This document shows, one piece after another, positions 37,049 through 64,000 of a stretch of DNA of 64,000 bases (positions are counted from its first letter, which is position 1; every line of letters begins with the position of its first letter). The translations under genes and the position numbers were made by a program. The stretch is taken from NCBI GenBank assembly GCA_938045295.1, contig CALINO010000032.1, forward strand, positions 1 through 64,000, in the 5' to 3' direction. The notes below the pieces were generated by a model, which was given only the letters and a program-made list of their open reading frames with translations, was not told the DNA's origin and did not search any database. Source of the stretch: an uncultured Arenicella sp. (lineage in GTDB: Bacteria; Pseudomonadota; Gammaproteobacteria; Arenicellales; Arenicellaceae).

Positions 37049-40000
37049 TTATTGAACCGGCAAGCTCGGGTCACCGAGTAAGGCCCAGTTACTGATGGCG
37101 GTGCGGTAATTCACCGGCAAGGTGCGCATGCCCAAACGAATGGATTCGCCCAGCGTTTGACCACTTTTCATTTGATCAGCAATAAAGTCAGACAAGCGGC
37201 GCTGATTATTATAGCCGCCCACCACTGATGGCCCGTGAATGGCAACGGCGGCATTCGCCCCTGAAAACATAAGCTGCAACGCCAGTGAATTATGACTGGG
37301 GCTTTCATAGTAGGTGGTGTAACAGCCCAACGACGTGATGAGCACCGGCGCGTCATTACCCAACGTTGGCACTTGAGACGCGGCCAACATTTGCGTAAAT
37401 GACCAAGCATTGGGTGAGGCGTGGCCGTTATAAAACACCCAAGAGTTATTGTTTGCAAAGCCGTCTAGCACACGCTGCTGAACTGTCTTATTGAGCTCGC
37501 TGGCAGGCACTGCTGGGTCGGCCGAAATATCGTCGACGTAAACGCGCTCCACATTGGCAATAGTGATGTCGGTCAAGCGAGCAAAATGGGCATCTAAATC
37601 AGCCGCAAAATCGGCCTCTCGAGTTTTGTCACCCAACAACAATACACCATGGCCTTGCTGCGTACGTTCAGCCTCTTTACTGGCCCAAGCAATACTTTTG
37701 TTGGCAATGGTGGCCACCTGACTCAATTCACGCACCGGCCAGCGGCCAATGGCTTTTTCCGGAAAGCCGTCGCCATCAAAATCAACAAACGGTTGGTCGC
37801 TAGGGGTAAAACGAGAGGTGCCTATTGAGGTGTAAAAGGTGGGGATAAAATTAATATTATCGGCGTTTTGACGGCCTAAATAGTCGAACGTATGACCACC
37901 AACAATCAACACGTATTTATAATTAATCTCTTGATCGGCCGCCTTTAAAAAGCGTTGAATTGCAATGTGCAGTGGCACATCGCGGCCGAACTGGTCGGCA
38001 ATATCATCAGTACTAATAATGCTGCTTTGCACCCCTTGTAAGCCACGCGCTTGCGCGAACTCTTCCAAGGCTGGGCCAATAAAATTAGGATGGCTGATGA
38101 TTAGTAAATCACTGTCCAGCAAATTGATTGCCGCAGGCACGGCCAGCGCTTCCATAGTCTCAGGCTTGCGTAATGCACTTTCAGAGCCGATGAAATACCG
38201 GCTTTCACCGGCCGCGCTAAACGCAATATCCAGCGCGCCCTTTTCAAGCGTTGAACGGTAAGGCTTAATGCGCACGGCGTTGTGATCTTCACGGTAGGCG
38301 TAGGCAATAAAACCGCGGCGGCGCTGTGGCATGATACTAATGCCATCAAATTCAGAGCTCTGCGCCGAACCGTCTAAAGCGTCGGCGGCGGTGAATTCAA
38401 TGCTGGCTGCCTTGGAATTGGCAACGGGGTAATTTAACGCCAATGAATCAACCACGATGGCATCAAAATCATAGCCGCTGTTTTGCACGGTGATGGTCAC
38501 TGAGTTATCGCCTGCTCGTAACAGACCAGCCGGCAAAGTCACCACCGCTGAACGCTCTTGCTGACCATCAAAACTCAAGGTGTTCACCAACTGACCGTTC
38601 ACTTGCATGCTAATAATGTGGTGCGGGTCTAAGCGGCCGTCGTCGTCAAAGTCTTGCAACGGTGCGTTGGCAATACCGCCTAAATAAAAATCCAACTCAC
38701 CGCTTTGATCGGCCAACACTTCAGGCAATTCAAAGGTGTATTCTTTGCTCGCTGGTTGCTCGGTGCGGAAAATTAAGTCCATCACCCAGGGCGAAGATAA
38801 CGGGCTAAAAATAACGTGCTGATTATCCAATGCCAGTTCTTGACGCTGGTAATGCCACGACTGCACCGAGCTTGGCTTACGCTTGATCATTCTTATGGGC
38901 AACACCAATTCTGGCGCACGGCTTATTTGATAAAAACGTTGGTCTTGATAAATAGATAACGCCGCATCAGGCGCCACCCCAACAAAGTCTATACTGCTGC
39001 CCTTGCCGAACACGCCGCGCTTAGCGGATCGAATCACTCGCGGTATGGCCTTGCCGTCTAAGCTAACGGCAATGTCATTATGCCTAACTCCATTCCAATC
39101 AATGCCTTGGGAGATTAGGTCAGCGTAGGTCAAACGGTACATGCCGGTTGTTTTAATGCCAACTTGCAAGCTCGGCAACGATTCGCTGCTTTGCTGTGCA
39201 GAGCGTTGCTTTTTCCAGCGGTTATTAATTTTAGTAAAGCCACGAGCACGCATGGTTTGCTCGTACTCCTTACTTACCTTAGCCCAATCAATGGGCTGCG
39301 ACTGAAAAGACTCGCCGTAAGTTTCGCCAATATCAAAAGGGCCAAAAAATTCTTCCACCCCATTAATATCAACGCTGGAAATAACCACGTTGGTCAAAGG
39401 CTGTTTTCCTTTGTGGTTATAACGCCAGCGGTAATGCTCGGTTTCCATTGAATCAATATGACGACTGCGCAATAGGTGCTTATTTAATCGCACCAACGAT
39501 TCTTGAGTGCCGTCTTGACCATGACCATCTTGCAGCAACGACCAAATATTAAAACCCGCATTAAAGGTTTCATCGGCCGTTTCCCAATTCAACTTAATGA
39601 AGGGGCCAATTTTCGCACTGCTGAATTTAGCCAAGGTAACCGGCACGGTGGTGACTGGGCCAATCACCACATCGGCCGTTGGGCACGACGGTGCTAACAA
39701 AGTTAAGCCCGGTGAGGTGGTGGTCAGCAATGAAAATGTTTCATCCGCCAATGAACCATCGCCGTCTGAATCGTAACGGTATTCCAACTCAGCGCGCCCA
39801 TCACAACAACGCTCATAGCCGAGCGCTCTTAATGTGTGCGAGCCTGCGGTTAATAATGTAGAGCCTTGCAATACATCGGGGTTACCAAAACTTAACGCCC
39901 ACCATAAATCGTCTGTCCAATCGGCTTCTAAGGCATTGCCATCAATGTAAAGCTCACCGCCACTGCCAAAGTCAGCGCCTAAACGAAATTCATACAACGC

Positions 40001-40699
40001 ATCGGCCGGCACCACAACCTGAGTACTGATGGATAAACCAAAATCCCCATTTTCGGTGAACACACCGCTGTGGTCATCCATAATTTCGGTTAAGTTTGTG
40101 CAGCCGTAATTAGGGTTAGAGGTAACTTCGTCAAAATTGAATTCGGCTTCCGCCGCCGCACGTGACTCGGGGCCGGGTGCCGCACTGGTGTGTGGCTGGC
40201 TATGGTATTTAAAACCCTGATTCACAAACGTGTCTGGCGCACTGCTTAATGGTGTGGTCACGTCAGTGCGGTTGTAATCAAGAAAAAATTGAGTGGTGGG
40301 CGGGCTTGGCGGCACGCTTGGCAAGCGCACCCAAACCACGGCGGTTTGACTGGCGGAGTCAACGTCTTCGACATAAAAGTCTAACTGTGCCGTTGTGTCT
40401 GAATTCCACGCAATAATGTCGTCACCATTATTAGTGAAATCAAACCCCGGTGCATTGGTCGCGTTTAAATCTAAACGTACGGTGTAATCGGTCAGCGTCG
40501 CCGCGGGCAATGCCGTATTTGAAACCGTAATCGGCAACCTAGATTGCGCATTAGCGCTGCTGGCATAAGCCAACACAAACAGGCATAACAACAAGGCCGC
40601 CACCCGTTTAGTCCACTCATTAGCCCGTTCAGAAAAACAAATAATTAACCGCTCCATAGATACATCGCCCCCAGCAATAATATTCATGCTACCCACCAT
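37049..40699 (-). CDS. gingipain-like C25 cysteine peptidase 1
   Basis: A 1216-residue secreted protein. A signal peptide (VAALLLCLFVLAYASSANAQ) ends near residue 52. An ATG at 40657, just before it and preceded by GGGGG, may be the real start. A DUF2341/PA14-like region with paired cysteines follows (about 55-340), then a VPVTLAKFSSAKIGPFIKLNW module, the GMYRLTYADLISQGID region, and a C-terminal C25 catalytic domain (about 860-1216). The catalytic His is 1093 (NGHASPNAW) and Cys 1126 (GCYTTYYES), 33 residues apart as in gingipain RgpB (His211/Cys244). A Ca-binding-like DFDGDGFPEKAIGRWPVR precedes them. The protein ends at GDPSLPVQ with no T9SS sorting domain. Confidence 0.88.
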   Translation of the reverse strand: MVGSMNIIAGGDVSMERLIICFSERANEWTKRVAALLLCLFVLAYASSANAQSRLPITVSNTALPAATLTDYTVRLDLNATNAPGFDFTNNGDDIIAWNSDTTAQLDFYVEDVDSASQTAVVWVRLPSVPPSPPTTQFFLDYNRTDVTTPLSSAPDTFVNQGFKYHSQPHTSAAPGPESRAAAEAEFNFDEVTSNPNYGCTNLTEIMDDHSGVFTENGDFGLSISTQVVVPADALYEFRLGADFGSGGELYIDGNALEADWTDDLWWALSFGNPDVLQGSTLLTAGSHTLRALGYERCCDGRAELEYRYDSDGDGSLADETFSLLTTTSPGLTLLAPSCPTADVVIGPVTTVPVTLAKFSSAKIGPFIKLNWETADETFNAGFNIWSLLQDGHGQDGTQESLVRLNKHLLRSRHIDSMETEHYRWRYNHKGKQPLTNVVISSVDINGVEEFFGPFDIGETYGESFQSQPIDWAKVSKEYEQTMRARGFTKINNRWKKQRSAQQSSESLPSLQVGIKTTGMYRLTYADLISQGIDWNGVRHNDIAVSLDGKAIPRVIRSAKRGVFGKGSSIDFVGVAPDAALSIYQDQRFYQISRAPELVLPIRMIKRKPSSVQSWHYQRQELALDNQHVIFSPLSSPWVMDLIFRTEQPASKEYTFELPEVLADQSGELDFYLGGIANAPLQDFDDDGRLDPHHIISMQVNGQLVNTLSFDGQQERSAVVTLPAGLLRAGDNSVTITVQNSGYDFDAIVVDSLALNYPVANSKAASIEFTAADALDGSAQSSEFDGISIMPQRRRGFIAYAYREDHNAVRIKPYRSTLEKGALDIAFSAAGESRYFIGSESALRKPETMEALAVPAAINLLDSDLLIISHPNFIGPALEEFAQARGLQGVQSSIISTDDIADQFGRDVPLHIAIQRFLKAADQEINYKYVLIVGGHTFDYLGRQNADNINFIPTFYTSIGTSRFTPSDQPFVDFDGDGFPEKAIGRWPVRELSQVATIANKSIAWASKEAERTQQGHGVLLLGDKTREADFAADLDAHFARLTDITIANVERVYVDDISADPAVPASELNKTVQQRVLDGFANNNSWVFYNGHASPNAWSFTQMLAASQVPTLGNDAPVLITSLGCYTTYYESPSHNSLALQLMFSGANAAVAIHGPSVVGGYNNQRRLSDFIADQMKSGQTLGESIRLGMRTLPVNYRTAISNWALLGDPSLPVQ

Positions 40700-40771
40700 T
40701 TATGTTACCCAATCTTATAAATTACCCATCAATACCTTTTAGCGCAAGCTGACACAACATTAAAGCCAAGC

Positions 40772-40798
40772 CAAAAAGTTAGACAAATAGTACATCTA
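40772..40798 (+). repeat. conserved intergenic element, copy 1
   Basis: CAAAAA, 4 nt, GACAAATA then GTACATCTA. The same arrangement, with one extra C before GTACATCTA, occurs at 49030-49057. It lies between C25 peptidase 1 (minus) and iscR (plus). Confidence 0.55.
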
Positions 40799-40846
40799 AG
40801 GCGAATTTAAAGTCACAAATTGTACGTAAATTTAAGCAAAAACCGC

Positions 40847-40875
40847 TTGATTACAGGGTTTTGGACTCCTATACT
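40847..40875 (+). promoter_or_regulatory. iscR-suf operon promoter
   Basis: -35 TTGATT (40847-40852), 17-nt spacer, -10 TATACT (40870-40875). The IscR-type dyad starts 6 nt downstream of the -10 box, which fits autorepression. Confidence 0.75.
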
Positions 40876-40881
40876 CCGATT

Positions 40882-40900
40882 CCCGAGTAAAATACTCAGG
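40882..40900. promoter_or_regulatory. IscR type-1-like binding site
   Basis: CCCGAGTAAAATACTCAGG is an inverted repeat (CCCGAGTA / TACTCAGG) closely matching the type-1 site bound by [2Fe-2S]-IscR in Proteobacteria. It overlaps the transcription start of iscR. Confidence 0.7.
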
Positions 40901-40929
40901 TTTCACACAACCTAATTTATACTTTTGTC

Positions 40930-41415
40930 ATGAAACTCACTACCAAAGGGCGTTATGCGGTTACCGCAATGATGGACTTGGCGTTGCACGCCAAGATCGA
41001 TTGCGTGTCTTTGGTGGACGTGTCTGAACGCCAAACTATTTCTTTATCGTATTTAGAACAACTGTTTCGCAACCTAAAAAAGGCCGGGCTGGTGAACTCG
41101 GTTCGTGGCGCGAAAGGTGGCTACATGCTGGCCAAAGCCGATAAAGACATTTCACTGGCCGACATACTTGTTGCCGCTGACGAGCAAATTAACTTGGCTT
41201 GTGGCGGCAGCGCCTGCAGCGATGAAACGCCTTGCTTAACGCATGGCTTGTGGGTCAATTTGAGCCAACAGTTTTACCAGTTTCTTAATAGCAAAAGTTT
41301 GAACGATCTTGTTAAAAGCCGTGATGTGCAAACCATGGCCACCATGCAAGACGTGACCCAAATCGGCAATATTCCGGTACACATTAGTAACGATACAGAG
41401 AATGACTATGTCTGA
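40930..41415 (+). CDS. iscR: Fe-S cluster assembly regulator IscR (Rrf2 family)
   Basis: A 161-residue Rrf2 protein starting [20 protein letters not shown], the IscR hallmark. The helix-turn-helix is at about 28-65 ([28 protein letters not shown]). Cluster ligands are Cys91, Cys96 and Cys102, with His105 in CLTH. The first spacing is four residues instead of the five of E. coli IscR (92/98/104). It is the first gene of iscR-sufBCDS-sufT and overlaps sufB by 14 nt. With an IscR-type dyad at its own promoter, it should repress the operon when clusters are plentiful and release it under iron or oxidative stress. Confidence 0.95.
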
Positions 41416-42883
41416 TCACAGCACCAACCCAAGCACTTTAGAAGAACCAAATAAGGAACTCAAAGAGCTCGTTAAACGCGAGTATAAAGAAGGGTTTGTC
41501 ACCGACATTGAGTCGGACACCTTTGAGCCTGGGTTAAATGAAGACATTGTTCGTCGTATTTCAGCGAAAAAAGGCGAACCAGAGTTCATGCTCGAATACC
41601 GTCTTAAGGCGTTTCGCCGCTGGCAAAAAATGAAAGAGCCAGACTGGGCACACATTGACTACCCAAAAATAGACTTTCAAGACATCGCCTATTACTCTGC
41701 GCCTAAAGAAATGCCTAAGCTCAACAGCTTGGATGAGGTAGATCCGAAGCTATTAGAAACCTATGAAAAACTAGGCATTCCTCTAGAAGAGCAAAAAATG
41801 CTGGCGAACGTGGCGGTGGACGCCGTTTTTGACAGTGTGTCGGTGCGCACCACGTTTCGTGAAACGCTATCAGAAGCCGGCGTTATTTTTATGCCCATTT
41901 CTGAAGCGGTGCACGAGCACCCTGAATTGATTAAGCAATATTTGGGCAGTGTGGTGCCCACTCAAGACAACTATTACGCGGCCCTAAACGCGGCGGTTTT
42001 TTCTGATGGCTCGTTTGTCTACATTCCTAAAGGCGTGCGTTGCCCCATGGAACTGTCAACGTATTTTCGTATTAACGAAGTGAACACCGGGCAATTTGAA
42101 CGTACGCTGATCATTGCCGATGAAGGCGCATACGTAAGCTATTTAGAAGGTTGCACGGCCCCTCAGCGTGATGAAAACCAATTGCATGCGGCCGTGGTTG
42201 AGTTGGTTGCGCACAAAGACGCTGAAATCAAATACTCAACCGTACAAAACTGGTACCCCGGCGATGAAAACGGCAAAGGCGGTATTTACAACTTTGTTAC
42301 CAAGCGCGGTATTTGCAAAGGCGACAACTCAAAAATTTCATGGACCCAGGTTGAAACCGGTTCAGCCATTACTTGGAAATACCCAAGTGTGGTATTGCAA
42401 GGCGATAACTCAGTGGGTGAATTTTACTCAGTAGCGCTGACGCACAACAAACAACAAGCCGACACCGGCACTAAGATGATTCACATGGGGAAAAACACCT
42501 CCAGCACCATCATCTCAAAAGGCATTTCAGCCGGTCATGGGCAAAATGCCTACCGCGGCTTGGTCAAAATATTAAAGGGCGCTGACAACGCAAGAAACTT
42601 TTCACAGTGTGATTCGTTATTGATGGGCGACCGATGCGGTGCCCACACTTACCCTTACGTGGAAGTTCAGAACCCAAGTGCCAACTTAGAACACGAAGCC
42701 ACCACTTCAAAAATTTCAGAAGATCAGTTGTTTTACTTAATGCAACGGGGCTTAGACGAAGAAGCGGCGGTGTCCATGATTGTGAATGGTTTCTGTAAAG
42801 AAGTGTTCAGAGAGCTGCCCATGGAATTCGCCGTGGAAGCACAAAAATTATTAGAGATTTCTCTTGAGGGCGCCGTAGGTTAG
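41402..42883 (+). CDS. sufB: Fe-S cluster assembly scaffold SufB
   Basis: A 493-residue SufB, the normal length. Signature regions are [36 protein letters not shown]-like [16 protein letters not shown] (residues about 203-218), [20 protein letters not shown] (about 248-267), and [31 protein letters not shown]-type [18 protein letters not shown] (about 396-413) with the conserved Cys. It forms the SufBC2D scaffold on which clusters are built. Start codons at 41402 and 41408 are equally possible (MTMSDH). The overlap with iscR indicates translational coupling. Confidence 0.97.
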
Positions 42884-42962
42884 GCGCTCGCAAAGCAATA
42901 GACAAGTAAGAAGTATTGATTGGGCCAATGGCCGTATTTACCTAAACCGAGAAGGTAGAAAA

Positions 42963-43718
42963 ATGTTAGTAGTGAAAGATTTACACGCCAGCGTATTTGG
43001 CACCCCGATTTTAAAAGGCTTAAACCTAACGGTGAATGCAGGCGAAGTGCACGCCATCATGGGGCCTAATGGCGCAGGTAAAAGTACGCTATCGAACGTG
43101 GTTGCCGGCCGTGACGGTTATGAAATCACCAGCGGTTCAATTGAATACTTTGGTAAAGATTTGACCGAGCTTGAAACCGAAGAACGCGCTTGCGAAGGCA
43201 TTTTCTTGGCATTTCAATACCCCGTTGAAATTCCGGGCGTAAGCAACATGGCAATGCTCAAAGCGGCGGTCAATTCAATTCGCAAATACAATGGCGAAGA
43301 TGAAATGAGCGCGGGCGACTTCCTTAAGTTAATTCGTGAAAAAGCCGCCTTGGTGGAAATGAAACAGGAATTTCTGAAACGTTCAGTGAACGAAGGCTTT
43401 TCTGGCGGTGAGAAAAAACGTAACGAAATTCTGCAAATGGCAATGCTTGAACCTAAGCTGGCGCTTTTAGACGAAACCGATTCTGGCTTAGACATTGACG
43501 CACTCAAAATTGTATCGCAAGGCGTTAACGCGTTGCGCTCACCGGATCGCGCCATGGTGGTGGTCACCCACTACCAACGTTTGTTAGATCATATTGTGCC
43601 TGACTTTGTGCACGTATTGGCCGACGGAAAAATTGTTAAATCTGGCGATAAGTCATTAGCACTGGAGCTTGAAGAAAAAGGCTACGGTTGGATCGAAGGA
43701 TTACAAGAGGCAAGCTAA
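42963..43718 (+). CDS. sufC: Fe-S assembly ATPase SufC
   Basis: A 251-residue ABC-type ATPase. Walker A is GPNGAGKST (residues about 36-44), the SufC-specific signature is [15 protein letters not shown] (about 142-156), and Walker B plus the catalytic Glu is [14 protein letters not shown]. It drives conformational change of the SufB-SufD pair in the cytoplasm. A 79-nt gap separates it from sufB, and sufD begins one base after its stop. Confidence 0.97.
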
Positions 43719-43719
43719 G

Positions 43720-45003
43720 ATGATTGCGGCAGATCAAAATCAAAGCTGGCTTGATGCGCATGCATCCACCCACTTTGCGAACATTTCATGGCTGAACGAG
43801 CTGCGTAATAACGCGCTGGCCGCCTTTGAACAACAAGGCTTGCCAACGGTGCGCGATGAAGAATGGCGTTACACAAATTTGCGCAGCCTAAAGAGCCACT
43901 CATACCATTTGAGCATGGCCTCGCCGTTAAGCATGGAGTTGCCGGCTACCGACAACCCACGCTTGGTGTTTGTCGACGGTTATCTTGATGCCGAGCATTC
44001 AAGCGCATTAGAACTCGATGGCGTTAATTTTGTGGCTGGGCATTTAGAGCAAAGCGACAGTTCACTGGCGCAGTATCACAGCACCACACTGCCGAGCTCG
44101 CAACACGGGTTTACGGCACTGAACACCGCCTACGCTCAAGACGGCTACGTGATTGAATTGGCCAACAATCAAGTTATTGAAAACGTGATTGAAGTGGTGT
44201 TCGTTTCGCAAAACGAAGGCGCGGTAAATCATACCCGCAACTTTATTATTGCCGGCGCTAATACAAAATGCAGTGTGGTTGAACGCCACATCGGCAAAGC
44301 CGGCTCAGTGTACTTAGCCAACAACGTTACTGAAATTATTGCTGGTGATAATGCGCACATAGACCATTACAAAATTCAGCAAGAGTCCGAAGAAGCGTTT
44401 CATATTGGCGGCGTGTTTATTCAACAGCAACGCAGCTCGCTGGTTAAAAACCACAACATTGCCCTAAGCGGCCTAGTCACGCGTAATGACATTTACACTA
44501 CGCTGCAAGGCGAAGGCGCGCACATGGAAATGAACGGTTTGGTGTTTGGCACTGGTCGTCAACACATCGACAACCACACCCAAGTGGATCACGCGGTGCC
44601 TAACTGCACCAGCGACGAATATTATAAAACCGTGCTCGACGATAACTCGCGCAGTGTGTTTCGTGGCCGCATTATCGTGGCGCAAGACGCGCAACAAACC
44701 AACGCCGACCAGCAAAACAACAACCTATTGTTGTCACCCAACGCGGAAGCCGACACCAAACCGCAGTTAGAAATTTACGCGGACGATGTTAAGTGCTCGC
44801 ATGGCGCCACCGTGGGTCAACTCGATGAAGGCTCTTTGTTTTACCTAAAGTCTCGCGGCATCAATAACGACTCTGCACGCGCCCTGCTGACCTTTGCTTT
44901 TGCTAACGAAGTGATTGATCGTGTGAACATTGAGTCCATTAAAGACGAGTTAACACAGCTTGTTGCTGGCGAATTGCTAAGCGGCTTAGAAGAGCTGGTG
45001 TAG
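43720..45003 (+). CDS. sufD: Fe-S cluster assembly protein SufD
   Basis: A 427-residue SufD with DEEWRYTNLRSLKSHSY near the N-terminus (the W-[KR]-[YF]-[TS] motif), MEMNGLVFGTGRQHIDNHTQVDHAVPNCTSDEYYKTVLDD (residues about 268-307) and GQLDEGSLFYLKSRGI (about 367-382). It pairs with SufB in the scaffold. The frame is open 17 codons further upstream, but ATG 43720 just after the sufC stop (TAAGATG) fits the operon and family start better. Confidence 0.95.
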   Translation: MIAADQNQSWLDAHASTHFANISWLNELRNNALAAFEQQGLPTVRDEEWRYTNLRSLKSHSYHLSMASPLSMELPATDNPRLVFVDGYLDAEHSSALELDGVNFVAGHLEQSDSSLAQYHSTTLPSSQHGFTALNTAYAQDGYVIELANNQVIENVIEVVFVSQNEGAVNHTRNFIIAGANTKCSVVERHIGKAGSVYLANNVTEIIAGDNAHIDHYKIQQESEEAFHIGGVFIQQQRSSLVKNHNIALSGLVTRNDIYTTLQGEGAHMEMNGLVFGTGRQHIDNHTQVDHAVPNCTSDEYYKTVLDDNSRSVFRGRIIVAQDAQQTNADQQNNNLLLSPNAEADTKPQLEIYADDVKCSHGATVGQLDEGSLFYLKSRGINNDSARALLTFAFANEVIDRVNIESIKDELTQLVAGELLSGLEELV

Positions 45004-45013
45004 TGAGGCCACA

Positions 45014-46270: not shown

Positions 46271-46274
46271 TGCC

Positions 46275-49098: not shown

Positions 49099-52000
49099 AT
49101 GGCTAATCTATTCGTATTTCTTCAACGACACATTCCACTTAATATCATGTTTCGTCTGCTGCTTATTATAAGTGCATCACTGTTTGCTGCATTACCGGCA
49201 CTGGGGCAAATTTGCTCCACTGACCCTAATCTAAACATTCCCGACGGTTCTGGCAGTGCGGGTTCTGGCGGCCCAGCCTCAATCACCATTGACGTACCGG
49301 CTTTTTACACCAATGCAATCACTGATCTGACGTTTGATGTTCAAGTAAATCACACCTACGTGGGTGATTTAATCATCACCTTGCAAAGCCCTTCAGGCAC
49401 CGTCGTTACTTTGATGGACAGACCCGGTGTGCCTGCCAGCACCTTTGGCTGCAGCCAGAATAATGTTGCTGCCACCTTTGATGACGCTTCAGGTATTCCA
49501 GTCGAAACACAATGCCCAGCGGCCACCCCTACTATCGCCGGTGTACTCAACCCACAAGGCTCATTAAGCGATTTTGACGGTGAAATACCGGCCGGCACAT
49601 GGACCTTGACCGTAACCGACAACGCTGGCCAAGACACCGGCTCTATTATTTCCGCGGCTAATTGTTTAGACCTAACCACGGTGCCAGTGGTACTCAGTTC
49701 ATTTAAATCAAAGCAACGCGGCCAACGCTTAAACATGCAGTGGCAAACCGCCAGTGAAGCCTTTAATTTAGGCTTTAACCTTTGGGGCAACCTAGACGGT
49801 GAATGGACTCAACTCAATAATCGCCTAATACCCAGTCACACGGTAGACTCGGTAGAACCGCAGCACTATCGCCGTAAAATCAACCTCAACAAACTGGCAA
49901 GCCAACCAACTCACATTGGTATTTCATCGGTTTCAAGCTCTGGGTTTGAAGAGTTTTATGGGCCGTTCGAAGTGGGCGAAAACTACGGTGAGCTCACTGT
50001 GCCAGAAGCCATTGATTGGAGCGAGCAGCGAGCGCAACACGCCCAAACAATGCGAAACAACGGTTTCGAATTTCGCCATAATCGTTGGCGTAAAAAAACT
50101 CAGCGTTCAGAAAAACAAGCCGCTCGTTTGCAGCAGCGTTTTTCAGACCTTTGGTTACGTATTGAAGAAACCGGCGTATACCGCATCACTCACCAAGACC
50201 TAGTTGCCCAAGGCATTGATCTAAGCGGGCTGCCTATTAAGCATCTGGCATTAAGTCAGGCTGGCAAACCAATTGCGCGTATAGTAAGCAACCCGAATCC
50301 GTCGAAAAATAAGCCGGGGAAAAGGCAACGCTTTGGCGAGGGCAGTGAAATTATTTTCTACGCACAGACGCCCAACGGCGAACAGGCCCGTTATGTTGAT
50401 TACACCAATATTCGCCTTTCGGCTGACATTAGCAAAGCCCTTAATGCTCAATCAGCCAGTGAATTACTTGATGTAGATGGCGCTGTTAGCCGCACCCACA
50501 TCCAACGAGTAAACTTTGGCAAACCGAACGGTTATTCGTTCATTATTCCGGGCTATAGCCCTTGGTATGACGAAGTCATTTATGCCTTTGGTGATACCGG
50601 CACCAAAGTAATGTCGTTTGACGTTGAACAATCGGCTGACCTTAACGCTCCGGTTAACATTGAGTTGAATTTGATGGGCGGCACCAGTTTTGACAATGTG
50701 GATAACGACGGTGATGGCGTGGTGGAACCCGACCATCACTTTAAGGTTTATCTGAATCGCGATGAATTTTCTGCGCCCATTTACGAAGGTTACAGCGAAA
50801 AAGTAGACGCGATACATGTTCAAATCAGCAACACTGGCCAACTCAAACATGGCAGCAATAGTATTGAAATTGAGGTTATTCCAGACAACGGTCATAACCT
50901 TGATGCCCTTTACTTTTTAAACGCCCAAGCCGCCTATCAGGTTGCTAATTCGGTAAACGGTACACATAACAAGTTCGAGTTGCTGGCTAACCAAGAGTGG
51001 GTTCAAGTCAACGACGCCAGTAACATTGAACGCGTGTTTGTTTATGACTCAGCCAATAACTTTGCAGAGGTCAATACCGTTCGCACGGCTGAACAGCTGG
51101 TATTTAAAGCGCCAAGCGCCATTGGCGAAAGTACGCAACGCACCGCGTGGCTGGCCAGCACTGATGGTTATTTAAGCCCTACTGAGATAAGCACCGTGCC
51201 TTCGCTAAGCGCACAAAGTTTAGACTTAACCGACATTAACTATGTCATCATCGCGGCACCGTCATTGATTGGCGCCGACCTTGAACGATTTGCACACACG
51301 CAACGCGAACTTGGCCGGCACGTTAAAATTGTCTCTGCTCACGACATCTACACTCAATACGCCGACGGCTTAGAGATACCCAGCGCCATTGCCCAATACC
51401 TAAAAGACGCCGCTAGTAACACCACCAGTAACAACGGGGCGCAAACCGCAGTACCACTGCAATACGCATTATTAGTCGGTGGGCACACGTACAATTATCG
51501 AGGTTATAACAGCACCCCCGAAGACCGCCCGATTAATTTAATTCCCTCGTTTTATCGAAATGGCGAGAGTTCAATAAACCGTCAAATACCCACTGCGGTT
51601 CCTTTCGTTGATTTTAACAATGATGGCCTGCCTGAACTGGCTATCGGCCGCTGGCCGGTGCGTAATTTAGAGCAATTAAATTCGGTGGTGAACAAAACCA
51701 TTGCTTGGCACCAAGACGGCTCAAACAAAAGTAACCGGCACGCATTATTCGTAGCACAACAAGACGAAGAGCTGAATAACTTCAGCGCTTCTTTGGAGCG
51801 ACTTAAAGCAAACGTTGGCCATATCAGCCAACCGTGGCCAATATTCAATCAAGTCTACTTTTCTGAGATTCTTGCTGACAACACGGTACCTGACAATGAA
51901 AAAGTGGCTACCGCACGCAAGCGGCTGATAGACGGCATCAATCAAGGCCCGGCATTAACGGTGTACAGTGGCCATGCGTCACCCACAACTTGGGGCAAGC

Positions 52001-52440
52001 AAAACTTGCTAACCACCTCAGTGGTGGATGAGTTCACTAATGCCGACAGCCCAACCTTAATTATTCCACTGGCGTGCTACACCACTTACTATGAAACGCC
52101 AAACGTGAAATCATTATCGGAACGCTTATTCACTGACAATCAAGCCGGTGCCGTGGGCATAAGTGGCCCAGCTCTCTTAAGCTATGCATCTAATAATGAG
52201 CGCTTTGCTAAAAGTTTGCTCGGGCTAATGACCCAACAAGGGCATGATCTTGGCACCGCCGTTATGTTGGCTAAAAACGCATTACGCAACAGCGGTGAGC
52301 GAGGGCAAACCGTGGTTTACAATTGGGTGACCTTAGCCGACCCCACGCTGAATTTTGCTTCTGTGCCAATTGACACACCGCCGCCATCAGACGATGAAAA
52401 GAAGAATCCAGCGCCTTCGCTTACCGTCACTAAGCAATAA
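49099..52440 (+). CDS. gingipain-like C25 cysteine peptidase 2 with P-domain
   Basis: A 1113-residue secreted protein. A signal peptide (LLLIISASLFAALPALGQ) ends near residue 36. A proprotein-convertase P/Homo B domain follows (about 45-190: VNHTYVGDLIITLQSPSGT, GTWTLTVTDNAGQDTG), then the same VPVVLSSFKSKQRGQRLNMQW module and GVYRITHQDLVAQGIDL region as peptidase 1. The C25 domain (about 715-1090) has DFNNDGLPELAIGRWPVR, catalytic His959 (SGHASPTTW) and Cys993 (LACYTTYYET). A short acidic, Pro-rich tail follows. No sorting domain for type IX secretion is seen. The domain swap at the N-terminus is the main difference from its paralogue. Confidence 0.88.
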   Translation: MANLFVFLQRHIPLNIMFRLLLIISASLFAALPALGQICSTDPNLNIPDGSGSAGSGGPASITIDVPAFYTNAITDLTFDVQVNHTYVGDLIITLQSPSGTVVTLMDRPGVPASTFGCSQNNVAATFDDASGIPVETQCPAATPTIAGVLNPQGSLSDFDGEIPAGTWTLTVTDNAGQDTGSIISAANCLDLTTVPVVLSSFKSKQRGQRLNMQWQTASEAFNLGFNLWGNLDGEWTQLNNRLIPSHTVDSVEPQHYRRKINLNKLASQPTHIGISSVSSSGFEEFYGPFEVGENYGELTVPEAIDWSEQRAQHAQTMRNNGFEFRHNRWRKKTQRSEKQAARLQQRFSDLWLRIEETGVYRITHQDLVAQGIDLSGLPIKHLALSQAGKPIARIVSNPNPSKNKPGKRQRFGEGSEIIFYAQTPNGEQARYVDYTNIRLSADISKALNAQSASELLDVDGAVSRTHIQRVNFGKPNGYSFIIPGYSPWYDEVIYAFGDTGTKVMSFDVEQSADLNAPVNIELNLMGGTSFDNVDNDGDGVVEPDHHFKVYLNRDEFSAPIYEGYSEKVDAIHVQISNTGQLKHGSNSIEIEVIPDNGHNLDALYFLNAQAAYQVANSVNGTHNKFELLANQEWVQVNDASNIERVFVYDSANNFAEVNTVRTAEQLVFKAPSAIGESTQRTAWLASTDGYLSPTEISTVPSLSAQSLDLTDINYVIIAAPSLIGADLERFAHTQRELGRHVKIVSAHDIYTQYADGLEIPSAIAQYLKDAASNTTSNNGAQTAVPLQYALLVGGHTYNYRGYNSTPEDRPINLIPSFYRNGESSINRQIPTAVPFVDFNNDGLPELAIGRWPVRNLEQLNSVVNKTIAWHQDGSNKSNRHALFVAQQDEELNNFSASLERLKANVGHISQPWPIFNQVYFSEILADNTVPDNEKVATARKRLIDGINQGPALTVYSGHASPTTWGKQNLLTTSVVDEFTNADSPTLIIPLACYTTYYETPNVKSLSERLFTDNQAGAVGISGPALLSYASNNERFAKSLLGLMTQQGHDLGTAVMLAKNALRNSGERGQTVVYNWVTLADPTLNFASVPIDTPPPSDDEKKNPAPSLTVTKQ

Positions 52441-55701: not shown

Positions 55702-55729
55702 GCTAATACCCCAAGGCTTGCAGGCGGGT

Positions 55730-56473: not shown

Positions 56474-56602
56474 CAAAACACAAACACCGTTACTGTCATA
56501 CACACCATTGATACACAATCCGCCAATCTAACATGCAACAGCGGTATACTCACCAAAGAAACTAATACTCAACGCATTTACTCGCAATATTAAAGCCCCC
56601 AG

Positions 56603-59050: not shown

Positions 59051-59242
59051 CGCTTTTTAAAAAAGTAAGCCAACTTGAGTTTTAAAGATAATTTACATTT
59101 CAAACGCCACTTAATAGTCAAAACGCCCATTAAGCGACAAATGCACACTCGCCTATAACACTTTTTTACAAAAGAGTTAAAAGCCACCCCCTATACTGAG
59201 CACAATCAATAACCATACCAAGTCATACAGAGGGGTATTACT
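59051..59242. other. gap upstream of the TM-helix gene
   Basis: 192 nt with AT-rich, promoter-like sequence in its second half and a strong ribosome-binding site (AGAGGGG) before 59243. No other feature was seen. Confidence 0.4.
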
Positions 59243-60397
59243 ATGAGTAGTTTGATAGAGCAGGTTCAGGCCACCCTAGGGCCTGTTTTTTCCAGCACGT
59301 TGGGGCATGCATTAATCGGTCTTGCGATCTTGATTATTGGCCTTATTGTGGTGAAGTTTATCACTGGCATATTTAAGAAGTTGCTGGCCAAGGTTGATTT
59401 CTTACAAGAGCACAATTTGGCCACTCCGGTTGTGTCTTTAATAAAAGCCGTGCTAACCATCTTTGTTTTAATGGCGGTATTACAGCACTTTGGCTTAACC
59501 GATGTGTTAGCACCACTGAAAAATATGGTGGATCAATTTCTGGCCGCCGTGCCGCGCATTATTGGTGCCGGTGTGGTTGGTTATGCAGGCTGGGTCATCG
59601 CTAAAATTGTGTCTGAGCTGGTTGGGGTCGGCTTAGGCAGCGTAGATAAACAACTGGCGTTAAGAACCGGCAATGACGAACTTAAAGTATCTAAGTTTGG
59701 CAGTGCCTTTATCTTCGGTGGCATTTTATTACCGATCGTGGTGGCCGCATTGGGTGTATTAAACATTCCTTCGATCACCTTACCTGCCACTGACATGATC
59801 AATAAATTAATGTCGGCCGTGCCGAATGTCGTTGGCGCTGGCATCATTTTATTAGTGACTTACTTTGTGGCCAAATTCGTGGTGTATATGTTAAGCGGCT
59901 TATTAGATGGCATGGGCGTCAACGAATTGCCAGCAAAAATGGGCTTCAGTAATTTGTTTTCTGAATCATTCACACTGAACAAATTAATTGGCTCTGCGGT
60001 TATCTTTTTCTCAATGCTGACCGCCACCACCGCCGCAGTTAACTTACTCGGCATAGAAGTGGTTTCAAACATCTTTGCCAAAGTACTTGAGTTTGGCGGC
60101 GGTATATTAGTTGGCGGCGTCATCTTAGTCATCGGTAACTTCTTAAGCACACTGGCACACCAAAAATTAGTGGCCGCTGGCAATGGCGGTATAGCCAACA
60201 TTGCTCGCGTGGCAATTTTAGGCTTGGTGCTGGCAATGGGCTTACGTTCAATGGGCTTGGCCGACAACATCGTTAACATGGCCTTTGGTTTCACCATCGG
60301 TGCCGTGGCCGTAGCCACCGCGTTGGCCTTTGGCTTAGGTGGTCGTGATGCAGCGAAAACCGTTGCGGATAACTGGGCCGAGAAAATTAAAAAATAA
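59243..60397 (+). CDS. TM-helix-repeat (mechanosensitive-channel-like) membrane protein
   Basis: A 384-residue inner-membrane protein with about nine hydrophobic segments, organised as repeats of the conserved TM-helix unit (LGHALIGLAILIIGLIVVKFI; AVPRIIGAGVVGYAGWVIAKIVSEL; AVPNVVGAGIILLVTYFVAKFV). It ends in an MscS TM3-like segment, TALAFGLGGRDAAKTVADNW (residues about 358-377). The beta and alpha-beta cytosolic domains of MscS are absent. Relatives such as Pseudomonas CmpX influence membrane stress signalling. It heads a group with a DUF481 protein and a true MscS, suggesting an osmotic or salt response. Confidence 0.82.
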   Translation: MSSLIEQVQATLGPVFSSTLGHALIGLAILIIGLIVVKFITGIFKKLLAKVDFLQEHNLATPVVSLIKAVLTIFVLMAVLQHFGLTDVLAPLKNMVDQFLAAVPRIIGAGVVGYAGWVIAKIVSELVGVGLGSVDKQLALRTGNDELKVSKFGSAFIFGGILLPIVVAALGVLNIPSITLPATDMINKLMSAVPNVVGAGIILLVTYFVAKFVVYMLSGLLDGMGVNELPAKMGFSNLFSESFTLNKLIGSAVIFFSMLTATTAAVNLLGIEVVSNIFAKVLEFGGGILVGGVILVIGNFLSTLAHQKLVAAGNGGIANIARVAILGLVLAMGLRSMGLADNIVNMAFGFTIGAVAVATALAFGLGGRDAAKTVADNWAEKIKK

Positions 60398-60422
60398 ACA
60401 CGTACCTTTTTACTAGTATCAG

Positions 60423-60446
60423 AAGGGGCTCACTCGAGCCCCTTTT
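60423..60446 (+). terminator. terminator-like hairpin after TM-helix gene
   Basis: Stem AAGGGGCT/AGCCCCTT with a 6-nt loop and four T residues, 25 nt after the stop codon. Confidence 0.75.
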
Positions 60447-60495
60447 CAATACCATTAATATTTTATTCATTTCATACATTTAAGAGAGAACCACT

Positions 60496-61227
60496 ATGAT
60501 TAAAAAAACCCTACCAGCACTTTTAGTAGCAATGTTAGCCGCAAGCAATGTGAGCGCTGAAGGCTGGAAAGGCCAAGGCGAAGCTGGCCTCATTAAAGCC
60601 AGCGGTAACACTGAAAGCGAGAATATCAACGCTGGCCTTAACTTTAAAAAAGAAGGCGATGTTATTACGCATGAAATTGATTTTTCAACTTACAAAGCAT
60701 CTACCGACAGTGTAGATTCAGCCGACAGCCTAGCGGCGTCTTACACACTAAAGTATAAGTTCACTGAACGCAGCTTCGCGTTTGGCTCGCTGAGTTATTT
60801 AGACGACGACTTTGATGGTTTTACCGAACAAACAAGTGCGGCTATTGGTTATGGCTATTCGGTGATTGATACCGAGCCAACTAAATGGGATTTAGGGATT
60901 GGCGTGGGCTACAGAGACACCAGCGAATTAATTAAATTAGAAGACGGTACTGAATTAGAAGGCATGGACTTAAGTGGTGCGACGTTAGTGTTATTGTCTG
61001 ACTACGCAAGTCAGTTGACCGAGAACACTCAGTTAGTCGACAAATTTCGCGCAGAAATTGGTTCCGACAATTCGTTTATTGAAAACGATTTGGCATTAGT
61101 TGTTTCCATGAACGAGAAATTCGCCTTAAAAGCAGGTATCTTAGTTCGCCACAACACCGATCCTGCGCCAGGTGCGGATGACACCGACACCATTACAAGC
61201 TTGAATTTGGTGTATAACTTCAACTAA
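60496..61227 (+). CDS. DUF481-family outer-membrane protein (YdiY-like)
   Basis: A 243-residue protein with a signal peptide (LPALLVAMLAASNVSAEG, cleaved near residue 22). It has the DUF481 start GWKGQGEAGLIKASGNTESENINAGLNF and then alternating beta strands ending in LNLVYNFN with terminal Asn after Phe. It is a predicted small beta-barrel of the outer membrane. Members such as YdiY are acid- or salt-inducible, though function is unknown. It lies between two mechanosensitive-type genes. Confidence 0.85.
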   Translation: MIKKTLPALLVAMLAASNVSAEGWKGQGEAGLIKASGNTESENINAGLNFKKEGDVITHEIDFSTYKASTDSVDSADSLAASYTLKYKFTERSFAFGSLSYLDDDFDGFTEQTSAAIGYGYSVIDTEPTKWDLGIGVGYRDTSELIKLEDGTELEGMDLSGATLVLLSDYASQLTENTQLVDKFRAEIGSDNSFIENDLALVVSMNEKFALKAGILVRHNTDPAPGADDTDTITSLNLVYNFN

Positions 61228-61264
61228 GTTTTATTGTAAAAACTCATCCAACAACGGAGACACC

Positions 61265-62080
61265 ATGGAACAGTTAGAAGCCTATCTGCCTATGATCAAA
61301 GAGAATGCAATGCTGTACGGCATTAACTTTGTTAAAGCACTTGCCATTTTCATTATTGGTAAGTTTATTGTAAAAATCATTGCCAACGCCATTGGTCGAG
61401 GCATGGCAAAATCTGGCTCAGATGAAATGCTGGCCAAGTTTGTTACTAACATTGCGTTCGCACTAATGCTTACCTTTGTGGTGATTGCCGCCATTTCGCA
61501 ACTGGGCGTTCAAACCGCATCGTTGGTCGCCATACTCGGTGCCGCTGGTTTGGCCGTTGGCTTAGCCCTACAAGGCTCTTTAGCCAACTTTGCGGCCGGT
61601 GTAATGGCGATTATTTTTCGCCCTTACAACGTGGGCGATGTGGTTGAAGTGGCGGGCATGACCGGTCAAGTGGAAGAGGTGGATATTTTCACCACCACAT
61701 TGCGTTTGCCTGATAAAACTAAAATCATCATTCCTAACGGGCAAGCACTGGAAGGGCCAATCACTAATTTCACTGAAGCAGGCAACCGCCGCATGGACTT
61801 GGCAGTTGGCATTTCGTACGACGCCGATATTGAACAGGCACGTAAGGTGATTTTAGAAGCTATTTCAACTTCTGATTACGTACTAGACTCACCGGCACCA
61901 AGTGTGGGTGTAAGCGAACTGGCCGATAACAGCGTCAACTTAACCGTACGCCCATGGGCAAAAGCGGCGGATCACCCGGCAGCAACGCTGGAGCTATTAG
62001 AGAAAATCAAAGTAGCACTGGATGCGGCTGACATTGGCATTCCGTACCCACAACGTGACGTGCATATTTATAACCACTAA
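61265..62080 (+). CDS. small-conductance mechanosensitive channel MscS
   Basis: A 271-residue MscS, near the E. coli length (286). The pore helix TM3 is AILGAAGLAVGLALQGSLANFAAGVMAI (residues about 89-116), followed by the beta domain FRPYNVGDVVEVAGMTGQVEEVDIFTTTLRLPDKTKIIIPNG (about 118-159). The C-terminal alpha-beta domain ends IPYPQRDVHIYN. It opens under membrane tension to release solutes on hypo-osmotic shock. Starts 37 nt after the DUF481 gene, so co-transcription is likely. Confidence 0.95.
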   Translation: MEQLEAYLPMIKENAMLYGINFVKALAIFIIGKFIVKIIANAIGRGMAKSGSDEMLAKFVTNIAFALMLTFVVIAAISQLGVQTASLVAILGAAGLAVGLALQGSLANFAAGVMAIIFRPYNVGDVVEVAGMTGQVEEVDIFTTTLRLPDKTKIIIPNGQALEGPITNFTEAGNRRMDLAVGISYDADIEQARKVILEAISTSDYVLDSPAPSVGVSELADNSVNLTVRPWAKAADHPAATLELLEKIKVALDAADIGIPYPQRDVHIYNH

Positions 62081-62103
62081 AAATATACACCCAGTCACAC
62101 ATT

Positions 62104-62144
62104 AAAAACGGCGATGCTTTTTGTTAAGCATCGCCGTTTTTTTA
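62104..62144. terminator. bidirectional Rho-independent terminator
   Basis: A long perfect stem (AAAAACGGCGATGCTT with its complement) and seven T residues on the plus strand. It separates the convergent MscS and C25 peptidase 3 genes. Confidence 0.92.
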
Positions 62145-62176
62145 TTGAAGACTAGACTAAGAGAAACTCATCAGGG

Positions 62177-64000
62177 CTACTGCAACGACAAGCTCGGGTC
62201 ACCCAAAATAGTCCAGTTAGTCACCGCGTCGTTCCATGGGCTCATGCGCGATTTTACTTTCTTCATCGCTTGCCCCCATGTGTTTTTGCCGCCTTTCATG
62301 GCCTTAAGCATGTTAACGCCGAAAATCGAATTTTCTCGATCTTCGCTTAGGTAGGCCGCGCCGGCAATTAGCACCGCCCCACCGTCGCTTTCAAATAACA
62401 ATTGGTGCGCCATGCTATTAACCGACGGCGTTTCATAGTAGGTGGTATAGCACGCCAACGGCATCACCGTGGTTGGCTTGCCACTGTTGTGCATTTGGCC
62501 AACGTCGGCGGCATTGAGTAAATTACGATACGTCCAACGACTGCTGCTTGCGTGGCCGCTGAACACGGTTAAGCCAATGCCCGCCGAATCTGGTTGATAA
62601 TGCGACAACAACTCAGCTTTAGCCTCTTGCACGGCCTGACCGCGCTCAAGGTAATGGTCTAGGTAAACTTCATTCACGTTCACACTACTACGGTCGATAC
62701 CCACTTGCTCTGTCATGGTATCGATTTGTGTGGCAAAACGCTGCCCGCGTGCTTGATCAGTGGCATCGGCCACGAGCATAAGGCGATGACTATATTTGTG
62801 CTGATTTTCTTCCCACGCTTTGGTTTTGGCAATGATGGTTTTTAAATCATCGGTGGTTCTCACCGGCCAACGGCCTAAAGCCACATCGGGCAAACCATCA
62901 TCATTCAGATCAGCAAAATGATTGTCTGTAGGAGCATACTGAAAGTGGCGCGAGACGGCTTCGTACTGGGTTGGCAAAAAGGTGACATTGCCGTTCGATA
63001 AATAATCGTTGTAATCGTAACTGTGCCCGCCCACTAACAATACATAGTCTATCTTGTTATTGGCACTGGCAGCCTTTAAATAGTTACGCAACGCGGTTGG
63101 CTCATGCACCCCGTAACCATAGCTATTGACAATGTCTAACCAGCTGACGATGCTTACCGTATGCCCATTGGCAATTTTAGTGTCTGCAAACTGGCTTAAC
63201 TCTTCGCCAAGAAAGGCTGGGTGAGCAACAATCAAATAATTGGCATCGAGCTTACGAACTAAGTTTTTGGGCTCAACTCGTTGTATGTGATCAAGCGTTA
63301 AATACGCCGACGGATCAACGATTGTGTAATGCGTCGTGTTGTTCGAATGAAGCTCGTCTATACCACCGTCTATACCACCAAAGCCCAAGGCATTGTTATC
63401 CAACGCCACGGTTTTTAACTGGGTGAAATTGCCGTTATCTTGATGCGCGTACACGGCCACTTGATCGACTGATGTGTCAACTTTATAAAACGGCGCTTGT
63501 TCATCGCTACCGGTAAATGTGAATGCCAGCCCGGGCTCATTAACCAACGGCTTAGGCGCACTCAAACCCACCGAATCGATGTAAACAATGTCGGCAAATT
63601 TTCCGGTGTCACCAACAACACTCACCTCAACCGTATTCGCGCCATCAACCAACCACTCGGCTGGCACCGAATATTCACGCTCTACATAACTGAATCCATC
63701 AAATCGCTCATCGGCAATATGATTGCCATTTAAGCTCACTTGCAAATGATGGTCGTCCACCGAACCGGGTAAATCAATGCCGCCAGACACGTTGATCGAT
63801 ACCAGTGCGTTATTTATCTGCGAGTCAATTGACAATACGTTAGTTGAAGAAGCCGATATCGTATGATTAAACACGTACTGTTTACTGGCCGGCGAGCCTG
63901 TAGACAACAGCATGGTGTCGTACCACGGGTCACCGCTGGTACTGGCCACAAAGTATTCAGAGTTTTCACCTTGCCATTGTGGCTGCAAGCCTGTTTGATG
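62177..64000 (-). CDS. gingipain-like C25 cysteine peptidase 3 (partial, cut by window edge)
   Basis: The last 607 residues of a third C25 peptidase; the frame continues past 64000. It has the same layout as the other two: YDTMLLSTGSPASKQYVF, VDDHHLQVSLNGNHIADERFDG, the AHPAFLGEELSQFADTKIANGH segment, LLVGGHSYDYNDYLS, DLNDDGLPDVALGRWPVR, catalytic His (codon 62552-62554, SGHASSSRW) and Cys (codon 62450-62452, LACYTTYYETPS), 34 residues apart. It ends at GDPSLSLQ. The N-terminal module and start lie outside the window. The C-terminus again lacks any sorting domain. Confidence 0.88.
   Translation of the reverse strand, partial: HQTGLQPQWQGENSEYFVASTSGDPWYDTMLLSTGSPASKQYVFNHTISASSTNVLSIDSQINNALVSINVSGGIDLPGSVDDHHLQVSLNGNHIADERFDGFSYVEREYSVPAEWLVDGANTVEVSVVGDTGKFADIVYIDSVGLSAPKPLVNEPGLAFTFTGSDEQAPFYKVDTSVDQVAVYAHQDNGNFTQLKTVALDNNALGFGGIDGGIDELHSNNTTHYTIVDPSAYLTLDHIQRVEPKNLVRKLDANYLIVAHPAFLGEELSQFADTKIANGHTVSIVSWLDIVNSYGYGVHEPTALRNYLKAASANNKIDYVLLVGGHSYDYNDYLSNGNVTFLPTQYEAVSRHFQYAPTDNHFADLNDDGLPDVALGRWPVRTTDDLKTIIAKTKAWEENQHKYSHRLMLVADATDQARGQRFATQIDTMTEQVGIDRSSVNVNEVYLDHYLERGQAVQEAKAELLSHYQPDSAGIGLTVFSGHASSSRWTYRNLLNAADVGQMHNSGKPTTVMPLACYTTYYETPSVNSMAHQLLFESDGGAVLIAGAAYLSEDRENSIFGVNMLKAMKGGKNTWGQAMKKVKSRMSPWNDAVTNWTILGDPSLSLQ

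What the first reader, a model, noticed from the sequence alone, without database searches (positions are those of the whole stretch)
37049..64000. Three gingipain-like C25 peptidases with swapped N-terminal modules and no sorting domain
Three large secreted C25 proteins (37049-40699, 49099-52440, 62177-64000) keep the His-Cys pair (33-34 residues apart, as in RgpB). They share a middle module but begin differently: DUF2341/PA14-like in one, a proprotein-convertase P-domain in another. Gingipains depend on type IX secretion and a C-terminal signal; these end directly after the catalytic domain. How they leave the cell and what they cut is open; matrix degradation, self-processing or predation are possible.
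Basis: partly seen in the sequence, partly recalled or inferred. Interest (0 to 1): 0.65.

Follow-up and report, generated by a model that had tools for sequence, protein, structure and literature searches.

The report
Adhesin-like proteins wired to peptidases
In a marine bacterium of the genus Arenicella, cysteine peptidases related to a gum-disease bacterium's protein-sorting enzyme are joined, as one gene or as a tightly coupled gene pair, to adhesin-like proteins through a shared small domain, which suggests a protein-processing or protease-targeting system that may work without the secretion machine such enzymes normally serve.

Summary
Three intact C25 genes lie where stated (the third runs 1.9 kb past the window), with His and Cys 33-34 residues apart. 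They share a middle module ("M") and differ before it. The reading changes. (1) Their nearest full-length relative is PorU, the type IX signal peptidase/sortase, minus PorU's own C-terminal part; gingipains match only the catalytic domain. (2) M is an FnIII-like domain without a Pfam match. Elsewhere in the genome M ends separate SdrD/DUF11-type proteins whose next, abutting or overlapping gene is a C25 peptidase; in the window both are fused. (3) In 18 Arenicella genomes 62 of 67 M hits have C25 1.05-1.35 kb downstream; the 12 unpaired hits (5 M, 7 C25) lie near contig ends. Outside the genus the link is looser, with one counterexample. (4) In a relative, six M-bearing genes begin with different heads while M is 73-94% identical in DNA. 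SprA was not found (no positive control); a type II secretion marker is present. Best reading: a head-M-peptidase cassette in which M docks a variable head to its own PorU-like peptidase. Whether the peptidase trims or anchors the head, or the head aims the peptidase, is unsettled.

The parts
37049..40699 (-). W1: fused head-M-PorU-like C25 gene, 1216 aa
39653..40699 (-). W1 head (aa 1-349): signal-peptide-like N-terminus (by eye), DUF2341 (aa 91-149), CCXG-type stretch (aa 183-312)
39230..39652 (-). W1 M-module (aa 350-490); basic linker follows (39188-39229)
37052..39187 (-). W1 PorU-like N-terminal region plus C25 catalytic domain (aa 505-1216); Pfam C25 at 37058-38104; His 37421-37423, Cys 37322-37324
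49099..52440 (+). W2: fused head-M-PorU-like C25 gene, 1113 aa
49324..49647 (+). W2 head: proprotein-convertase P-domain (aa 76-183)
49675..50067 (+). W2 M-module (aa 193-323): predicted 7-strand FnIII-like sandwich and the helix after it
50068..50124 (+). W2 basic linker (aa 324-342) between M and the PorU-like part
50125..52356 (+). W2 PorU-like N-terminal domain, CBM35-like jelly roll and C25 catalytic domain (aa 343-1086); Pfam C25 51241-52353; His 51973-51975, Cys 52075-52077
62177..64000 (-). W3: C-terminal half of a 1233-aa fused gene (contig 62177-65878); Pfam C25 62183-63238; His 62552-62554, Cys 62450-62452; its M-module (contig 64400-64804) and H-lectin head lie beyond the window

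Best explanation
The three genes are fused copies of a modular cassette: [variable secreted head]-[M: FnIII-like domain + tail]-[PorU-like C25 peptidase]. Other copies in the same genome encode head-M and peptidase as two abutting or overlapping genes. M is most likely the recognition/docking domain that ties a head to its own peptidase, in cis when fused and in trans when split. After Sec export (and probably type II secretion; no sign of type IX), the PorU-like peptidase most likely acts on its cognate head protein just C-terminal of M: it would trim it, or perhaps re-attach it to a surface acceptor, as PorU does with type IX cargo. Shown: architecture, linkage, intact catalytic dyad, PorU-type full-length homology and predicted fold, differing heads on a common cassette. 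Inferred: docking, cleavage site, anchoring, export route.
For: Linkage: in 18 Arenicella genomes 62 of 67 M hits have C25 downstream on the same strand at 1052-1352 bp, and 61 of 68 C25 hits have M; the 5 + 7 exceptions lie near contig ends (lengths); one congener, G275, has neither. In split pairs the C25 frame opens within 69 nt before to 4 nt after the partner's end and carries its own signal-peptide-like start. M and C25 distances correlate (r 0.788 over 45 loci, 0 of 2000 shuffles as high). In 274 class genomes C25 is in 10 of 12 M-positive and 6 of 262 M-negative ones; without the genus 7 of 9 and 6 of 262 (relatedness not corrected). In three of these (G032, G177, G232) weaker M-like domains lie away from the C25 gene, in four of five proteins at the C-terminus. 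PorU is the full-length relative (Foldseek 5.4e-26; Z 19.3 over 572 residues; profile E 2.2e-47). Four giant one-frame fusions keep a signal-peptide-like stretch ending A-H-A between M and C25, as if still meant to be separated. Linkers are 29% K+R against 7.3% overall (32 linkers).
Against: Tails after M are not uniform: basic in one split lineage, acidic in the other. The column aligned with RgpB Asp163 (S1 role recalled) is Asp in 17 of 17 Arenicella split peptidases but Ser/Thr in W2-type (8 of 8) and Gln/Ser in W3-type (10 of 10), although their linkers are just as basic, so simple Arg-directed self-cleavage is doubtful there. SprA was not found but without a control; PorV/PorZ were not searched. 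G320 has an M-like domain with no C25 in the 3 kb downstream, and six class genomes have C25 without M. FnIII-like domains are common, so weak M-like hits outside the order may mean little. Free-standing or dockerin-borne exported C25 peptidases of other phyla are described as digestive enzymes (PMC6752024, PMC8542988; passages), which favours the rival.
Confidence: 0.41

Rival explanations
1. Targeted proteases: the head (lectin, P-domain, SdrD/DUF11 fibre) binds a surface or polymer, and M holds the C25 peptidase next to it, covalently or as a complex, so that it digests external protein. This resembles the adhesin-protease complexes of RgpA/Kgp (recalled) with the order of parts reversed.
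For: Small heads with H-lectin and P-domains; the S1-aligned residue is steady within most paralogue types but differs between them (D, S, Q, G), which suits different external substrates; several copies per genome (up to 7 C25 hits in Arenicella); a type II secretion marker; precedent: exported C25 genes as the largest class of exported peptidases in an estuary sediment (PMC6752024) and a dockerin-bearing C25 beside a scaffoldin in Cloacimonadota (PMC8542988) (passages).
Against: Does not by itself explain why every copy that the contig allows, even one beside a 3427-residue repeat protein, keeps the same M at the same spacing, nor why PorU is the closest full-length relative.
Confidence: 0.39
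2. Ordinary modular secreted peptidases: M is a neutral FnIII spacer carried along, and pairing only reflects common descent of one gene that was split or fused a few times.
For: M has an FnIII-like predicted fold (best Z 9.7, FnIII domains at about 7-9); the tree needs few changes between fused and split.
Against: Split pairs keep the M-bearing partner next to C25 in every Arenicella copy that the contig allows; in G312 DNA similarity between paralogues begins at M while heads differ, so M belongs to the conserved cassette, not to the head.
Confidence: 0.14
3. True type IX cargo, or a hidden type IX system.
For: PorU relationship.
Against: No SprA in 18 of 18 genomes (uncontrolled); no domain after the catalytic one; a published survey found type IX systems only in Bacteroidetes (PMC4793230, passages); the single Por_Secre_tail match, in the C37 partner, lies inside SdrD_B repeats with 0 stretches passing.
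Confidence: 0.02

Closest known systems
PorU, type IX secretion signal peptidase/sortase (Porphyromonas gingivalis; PDB 6ZA2)
   Same: N-terminal region, jelly roll and C25 domain align over PorU 40-791 (Z 19.3, 572 residues) and by profile (E 2.2e-47); catalytic His/Cys intact; in the literature acts on the C-terminal Ig-like domain of cargo (PMC11285876, passages).
   Different: Lacks PorU's region after about residue 790, which includes its CTD; scores far below the NCBIfam PorU cut-off (117-181 bits against 420); no SprA found; fused or paired 1:1 with one head protein instead of serving many cargoes.
Gingipains RgpB, RgpA, Kgp
   Same: Catalytic domain fold (RgpB Z 35.7, 318 residues), His-Cys spacing, adhesive domains on the same polypeptide as in RgpA/Kgp (recalled).
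   Different: Profile match to RgpB only over positions 350-700; no CTD; adhesive part N-terminal instead of C-terminal.
Type IX CTD (sorting domain)
   Same: Small Ig-like beta-sandwich at the C-terminus of the exported protein that a PorU-type enzyme handles (3+4 sandwich, PMC11285876, passages).
   Different: M has no family match; its best structural matches are FnIII-type domains; it is followed by a charged tail or by the peptidase itself.
Exported C25 peptidases of other phyla (sediment archaea, Cloacimonadota with dockerin)
   Same: C25 outside Bacteroidota, exported, in Cloacimonadota docked to a scaffold (PMC6752024, PMC8542988; passages).
   Different: No M-module or adhesin pairing is mentioned in the passages I saw; I did not compare the sequences.
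Gram-positive sortases encoded beside their own substrates
   Same: Dedicated transpeptidase gene next to a repeat-rich surface adhesin (recalled).
   Different: Unrelated enzyme family, Gram-negative host; anchoring is not shown here.

Membership tests
Pfam/MEROPS family C25 | Peptidase_C25 over cut-off with catalytic His-Cys dyad | tested here: met
   173-211 bits against 23; His 51 of 51, Cys 50 of 50 with letters
PorU (NCBIfam NF033707 equivalog) | Score over the curated cut-off (420 bits) | tested here: not met
   117, 170.9 and 180.7 bits, model positions up to 733 of 1095; whole W3 178.2
PorU | Own C-terminal region with CTD after the catalytic domain | tested here: not met
   W1 and W3 end 2 and 1 residues after the C25 match, W2 28 residues later
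PorU | Works inside a type IX system (SprA/Sov, PorV, PorZ) | tested here: inconclusive
   SprA_N 0 of 18 genomes but no control rang; PorV and PorZ not searched
PorU-type activity (C-terminal signal peptidase/transpeptidase) | Cleaves cargo before its C-terminal domain and attaches it to the surface | not testable with these tools
   needs biochemistry
Gingipain | CTD at the C-terminus | tested here: not met
   0-28 residues follow the catalytic match
Gingipain | Gingipain pro-domain before the catalytic domain | tested here: inconclusive
   The N-terminal part falls in the PorU match (positions 10-349), and the listed gingipain matches start at 350 or later; distant kinship not excluded
Gingipain R | Asp at the RgpB Asp163 position (role recalled) | tested here: inconclusive
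   Asp in W1, Ser in W2, Gln in W3 by sequence alignment only
Fibronectin type III (M-module) | Seven-strand FnIII sandwich | tested here: inconclusive
   Model pLDDT 83 with 7 strands; FnIII domains up to Z 8.9, top hit Z 9.7; no Foldseek E under 1e-3; no Pfam match

The most novel reading that the evidence does not exclude
A sorting system built on a PorU-type peptidase but without type IX secretion: surface proteins of Arenicellales carry a C-terminal FnIII-like signal (M) that a cognate PorU-like transpeptidase recognises to trim and covalently anchor them. The enzyme is encoded either as the next gene or fused to its own substrate (a self-sorting adhesin), and the M-peptidase cassette is shuffled behind new heads. 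It would be a candidate for what PorU did before, or does outside, type IX secretion.
Probability: 0.25. Interest if true: 0.85.

Novelty: new variant of a known kind. Interest (0 to 1): 0.55.

Why it matters
PorU and gingipains are known as parts of the Bacteroidota type IX world, and exported C25 peptidases are also reported from sediment archaea and Cloacimonadota (PMC6752024, PMC8542988; passages). Here full-length PorU-like peptidases occur as a multi-copy family in Gammaproteobacteria in which SprA was not found, and each is tied to one adhesin-like protein. That makes 'what does a PorU-type enzyme recognise and do without type IX secretion' testable with a two-gene system, offers fused natural partners for structure work, and points to exchange of protein heads over a conserved peptidase cassette. 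My paper searches (open-licence PubMed Central only, judged by titles and abstract beginnings apart from the passages cited) listed none on this pairing or on C25 peptidases of Gammaproteobacteria.

Tried and rejected
Gingipain membership: not supported, as above. Predation/toxin role: nothing seen for it. PEP-CTERM sorting: the CCXG match in W1 covers only the head, and the split tails printed show no hydrophobic C-terminal segment to my eye. Type IX CTD in the C37 partner: TIGR04183 27.8 bits, over its cut-off of 23, but inside SdrD_B repeats with 0 stretches passing; taken as spurious. Arg-specific self-cleavage at the basic linker: considered, weakened by the S1-column result. Paper search was nearly useless (one common word was enough to match). 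T2SSK (12 of 18, not in the home genome) was a weak marker; T2SSG was used instead (15 of 18, home genome included). A genome-contig scan with P0002 found nothing; a second with A5 gave 16 loci and the genus name. Sequence search of M against PDB chains: 0 matches at E<=1. Tree labels: 'split' for outgroup rows L053 and L054 only means that no M is in that frame; L048 and L073 were relabelled by hand from 'fused' to 'fusedSP' because their linkers hold the hydrophobic stretch; L012 (truncated) was left out. In the order outside the genus 10 of 26 C25 hits lack a linked M: six start within 600 bp of a contig start, four (G321, G337, G340, G367) were not followed. In the class sample six genomes have C25 but no M, two have M but no C25.
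Full report
OBSERVATION. The window is contig C32:1-64000 of a 2.99 Mb genome in 92 contigs. The third continues to contig position 65878 and is 1233 aa long. His-Cys spacing is 33, 34 and 34. They are scattered among other genes, not one operon: between them lie, by my reading of the translations, a SUF iron-sulfur cluster, a family-B DNA polymerase and mechanosensitive-channel-like genes.

WHAT THE PEPTIDASE IS. NCBIfam's best model is PorU for all three, well below its cut-off. A profile of 16 C25 proteins (A3) against PDB sequences gives PorU E 2.2e-47 over positions 10-700 of 701, RgpB 5.2e-33 over 350-700 and Kgp 2e-19 over 449-642. The AlphaFold model of W2 (pLDDT 71.7, pTM 0.62) matches RgpB's catalytic domain (Z 35.7, 318 residues) and PorU residues 40-791 (Z 19.3, 572 residues), and has a CBM35-like jelly roll at about 469-615 (Z about 10); Foldseek's top hit is PorU, 5.4e-26. 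The proteins stop where PorU goes on to its last part and CTD.

THE MODULE AND ITS TWO GENE FORMS. The genome has seven C25 hits. On C15, C26 and C37 the C25 gene directly follows another gene whose C-terminus is the same module. The partner on C15 is a 3427-aa SdrD_B repeat protein with a signal-peptide-like start; the one on C26 carries DUF7507/DUF11 repeats, the one on C37 SdrD_B. A fourth pair is cut by contig ends: C21 holds a partner and the start of a C25, C59 a C25 without a start; that C21 and C59 are one locus is inferred. On that reading there are seven M and seven C25: three fused (in or reaching into this window) and four split. M has no Pfam or NCBIfam match. Folded alone it is a seven-strand sandwich followed by helix, hairpin and basic helix (pLDDT 83). 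Its best structural matches are FnIII-like (top Z 9.7; Foldseek best E 6e-3), so FnIII kinship is likely but not proven.

LINKAGE. In 18 Arenicella genomes, 17 have C25 and the same 17 have M. 62 of 67 M hits have a C25 hit downstream on the same strand, 1052-1352 bp away, and 61 of 68 C25 hits have M. The 5 and 7 exceptions lie so near a contig end that the partner match would fall off or be cut (contig lengths; the tightest case is G283:C246, whose fuller M hit leaves about 900 bp). In the order, outside the genus, 17 of 33 M hits are linked (1024-1536 bp). Of the other 16, nine end at or within 150 bp of a contig edge and four (two hits of one M in G305:C97; G296:C120 and C61) are followed by the first part of a C25 protein; two (G295:C81, G301:C41) were not checked; one (G320) has no C25 in the 3 kb downstream. 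In 274 class genomes, C25 is present in 10 of 12 M-positive and 6 of 262 M-negative genomes; without the genus 7 of 9 and 6 of 262 (Fisher 3e-9; several genomes share a family, so they are not independent). In G032, G177 and G232 weaker M-like domains (E about 1e-7 to 1e-16) lie away from C25, in four of five proteins at the C-terminus.

JUNCTIONS. In the split pairs printed the C25 frame (stop to stop) opens between 69 nt before and 4 nt after the last sense codon of the partner; in C37 start and stop overlap as ATGA. Small fusions have linkers of 18-44 residues; K+R is 29% on average over 32 linkers (giant fusions and two from outside the genus included) against 7.3% in the whole proteins. 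Four giant single frames (L048, L073, L130, L131) keep a hydrophobic stretch ending in A-H-A between M and the peptidase: they look like read-through fusions of split pairs whose internal signal peptide could still be cut (judged by eye, no predictor). In the tree of 50 C25 sequences the 26 small Arenicella fusions form one side of a branch (100/99) and 16 split plus 4 giant fusions another (100/99); the giant fusions need 3 changes.

DIFFERING HEADS. Among the 18 members of A6 (two of them partial), Pfam finds P-domains in 6, H-lectin in 4, DUF2341 in 2. In G312 six contigs end in or within 150 bp after M. The six genes start differently (GEVED in two, SdrD_B in one, a below-cut-off SpaA_4 in one, nothing in two). 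DNA similarity between them (73-94% over 129-366 bp, seen in 13 of 15 pairs) begins within about 10 bp of the M start for the three I placed by hand (L147, L148, L149), with no other match over 120 bp at E 1e-10. In the home genome the C37 and C59 peptidase ends are 94.4% identical over 627 bp, whereas the C37 and C21 partners are 67-69% identical in the stretches that match. This fits exchange of heads over a conserved M-peptidase cassette. Within Arenicella the head types follow the peptidase clades (the eight W2-type rows form one clade), so swapping there is old.

SPECIFICITY HINT. The column aligned with RgpB Asp163 (whose S1 role I recall) is Asp in 17 of 17 Arenicella split enzymes, 3 of 3 W1-type and 3 of 4 giant fusions, Ser/Thr in 8 of 8 W2-type, Gln/Ser in 10 of 10 W3-type. 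This is sequence alignment only. It speaks for different substrates among paralogues, hence for the targeting rival, and against one common Arg-directed self-cleavage.

EXPORT. SprA was not found in 18 of 18 genomes, but no control rang; a published survey found type IX systems only in Bacteroidetes (PMC4793230, passages). T2SSG is present here (E 7.1e-34) and in 15 of 18, 11 of 11 of good quality. Use of type II secretion by these proteins is inference.

LITERATURE. Nine searches listed no paper on C25 peptidases of Gammaproteobacteria or on this pairing; I saw listings with abstract beginnings. I read passages of PMC11285876, PMC9426571, PMC6752024, PMC8542988 and PMC4793230. Exported C25 peptidases outside Bacteroidota are reported: abundant in estuary sediment metagenomes and in sediment archaea, and with a dockerin in Cloacimonadota. 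Subscription papers and preprints are mostly outside that library.

VERDICT. Confirmed and widened: a multi-copy system found in 17 of 18 Arenicella genomes, of PorU-like C25 peptidases coupled through an FnIII-like module to variable adhesin-like heads, fused or split. The mechanism is open between cognate processing/anchoring (0.41) and head-guided proteolysis (0.39).

Noticed in passing
window 29373-31769 and 33084-35504: Two proteins with Agarase_CBM domains; with TonB receptors at 11442-14276 and 14662-17460 and a tryptophan-halogenase-family gene at 1278-2834 this may be an algal-polysaccharide region.
   Followed up: no
L008:5321-8542 (contig C32, about 66.3-69.5 kb), beside W3: TonB-dependent receptor with an STN-like N-terminus (28.0 bits, just under the cut-off of 28.4), upstream of W3, next to what looks by eye like a FecR-type fragment; possible signal-controlled neighbour.
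   Followed up: no
window 20930-22000: Gene of the major royal jelly protein family (PF03022, 61 bits) in a marine bacterium.
   Followed up: no
L071:1430-5176 and 5231-8932 (G279:C162): Two tandem fused head-M-C25 genes whose C25 parts are identical in protein, a very recent duplication.
   Followed up: no
L147-L152 (G312): The assembly breaks in or just after M in six different genes, as expected if the downstream M-peptidase sequence is a near-identical repeat; suggests ongoing recombination or gene conversion.
   Followed up: partly
L103, L104, L105, L107 (G032, G177, G232): Secreted-looking proteins ending in an M-like domain in genomes with a C25 gene found elsewhere; possible in-trans partners of one peptidase.
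   Followed up: partly
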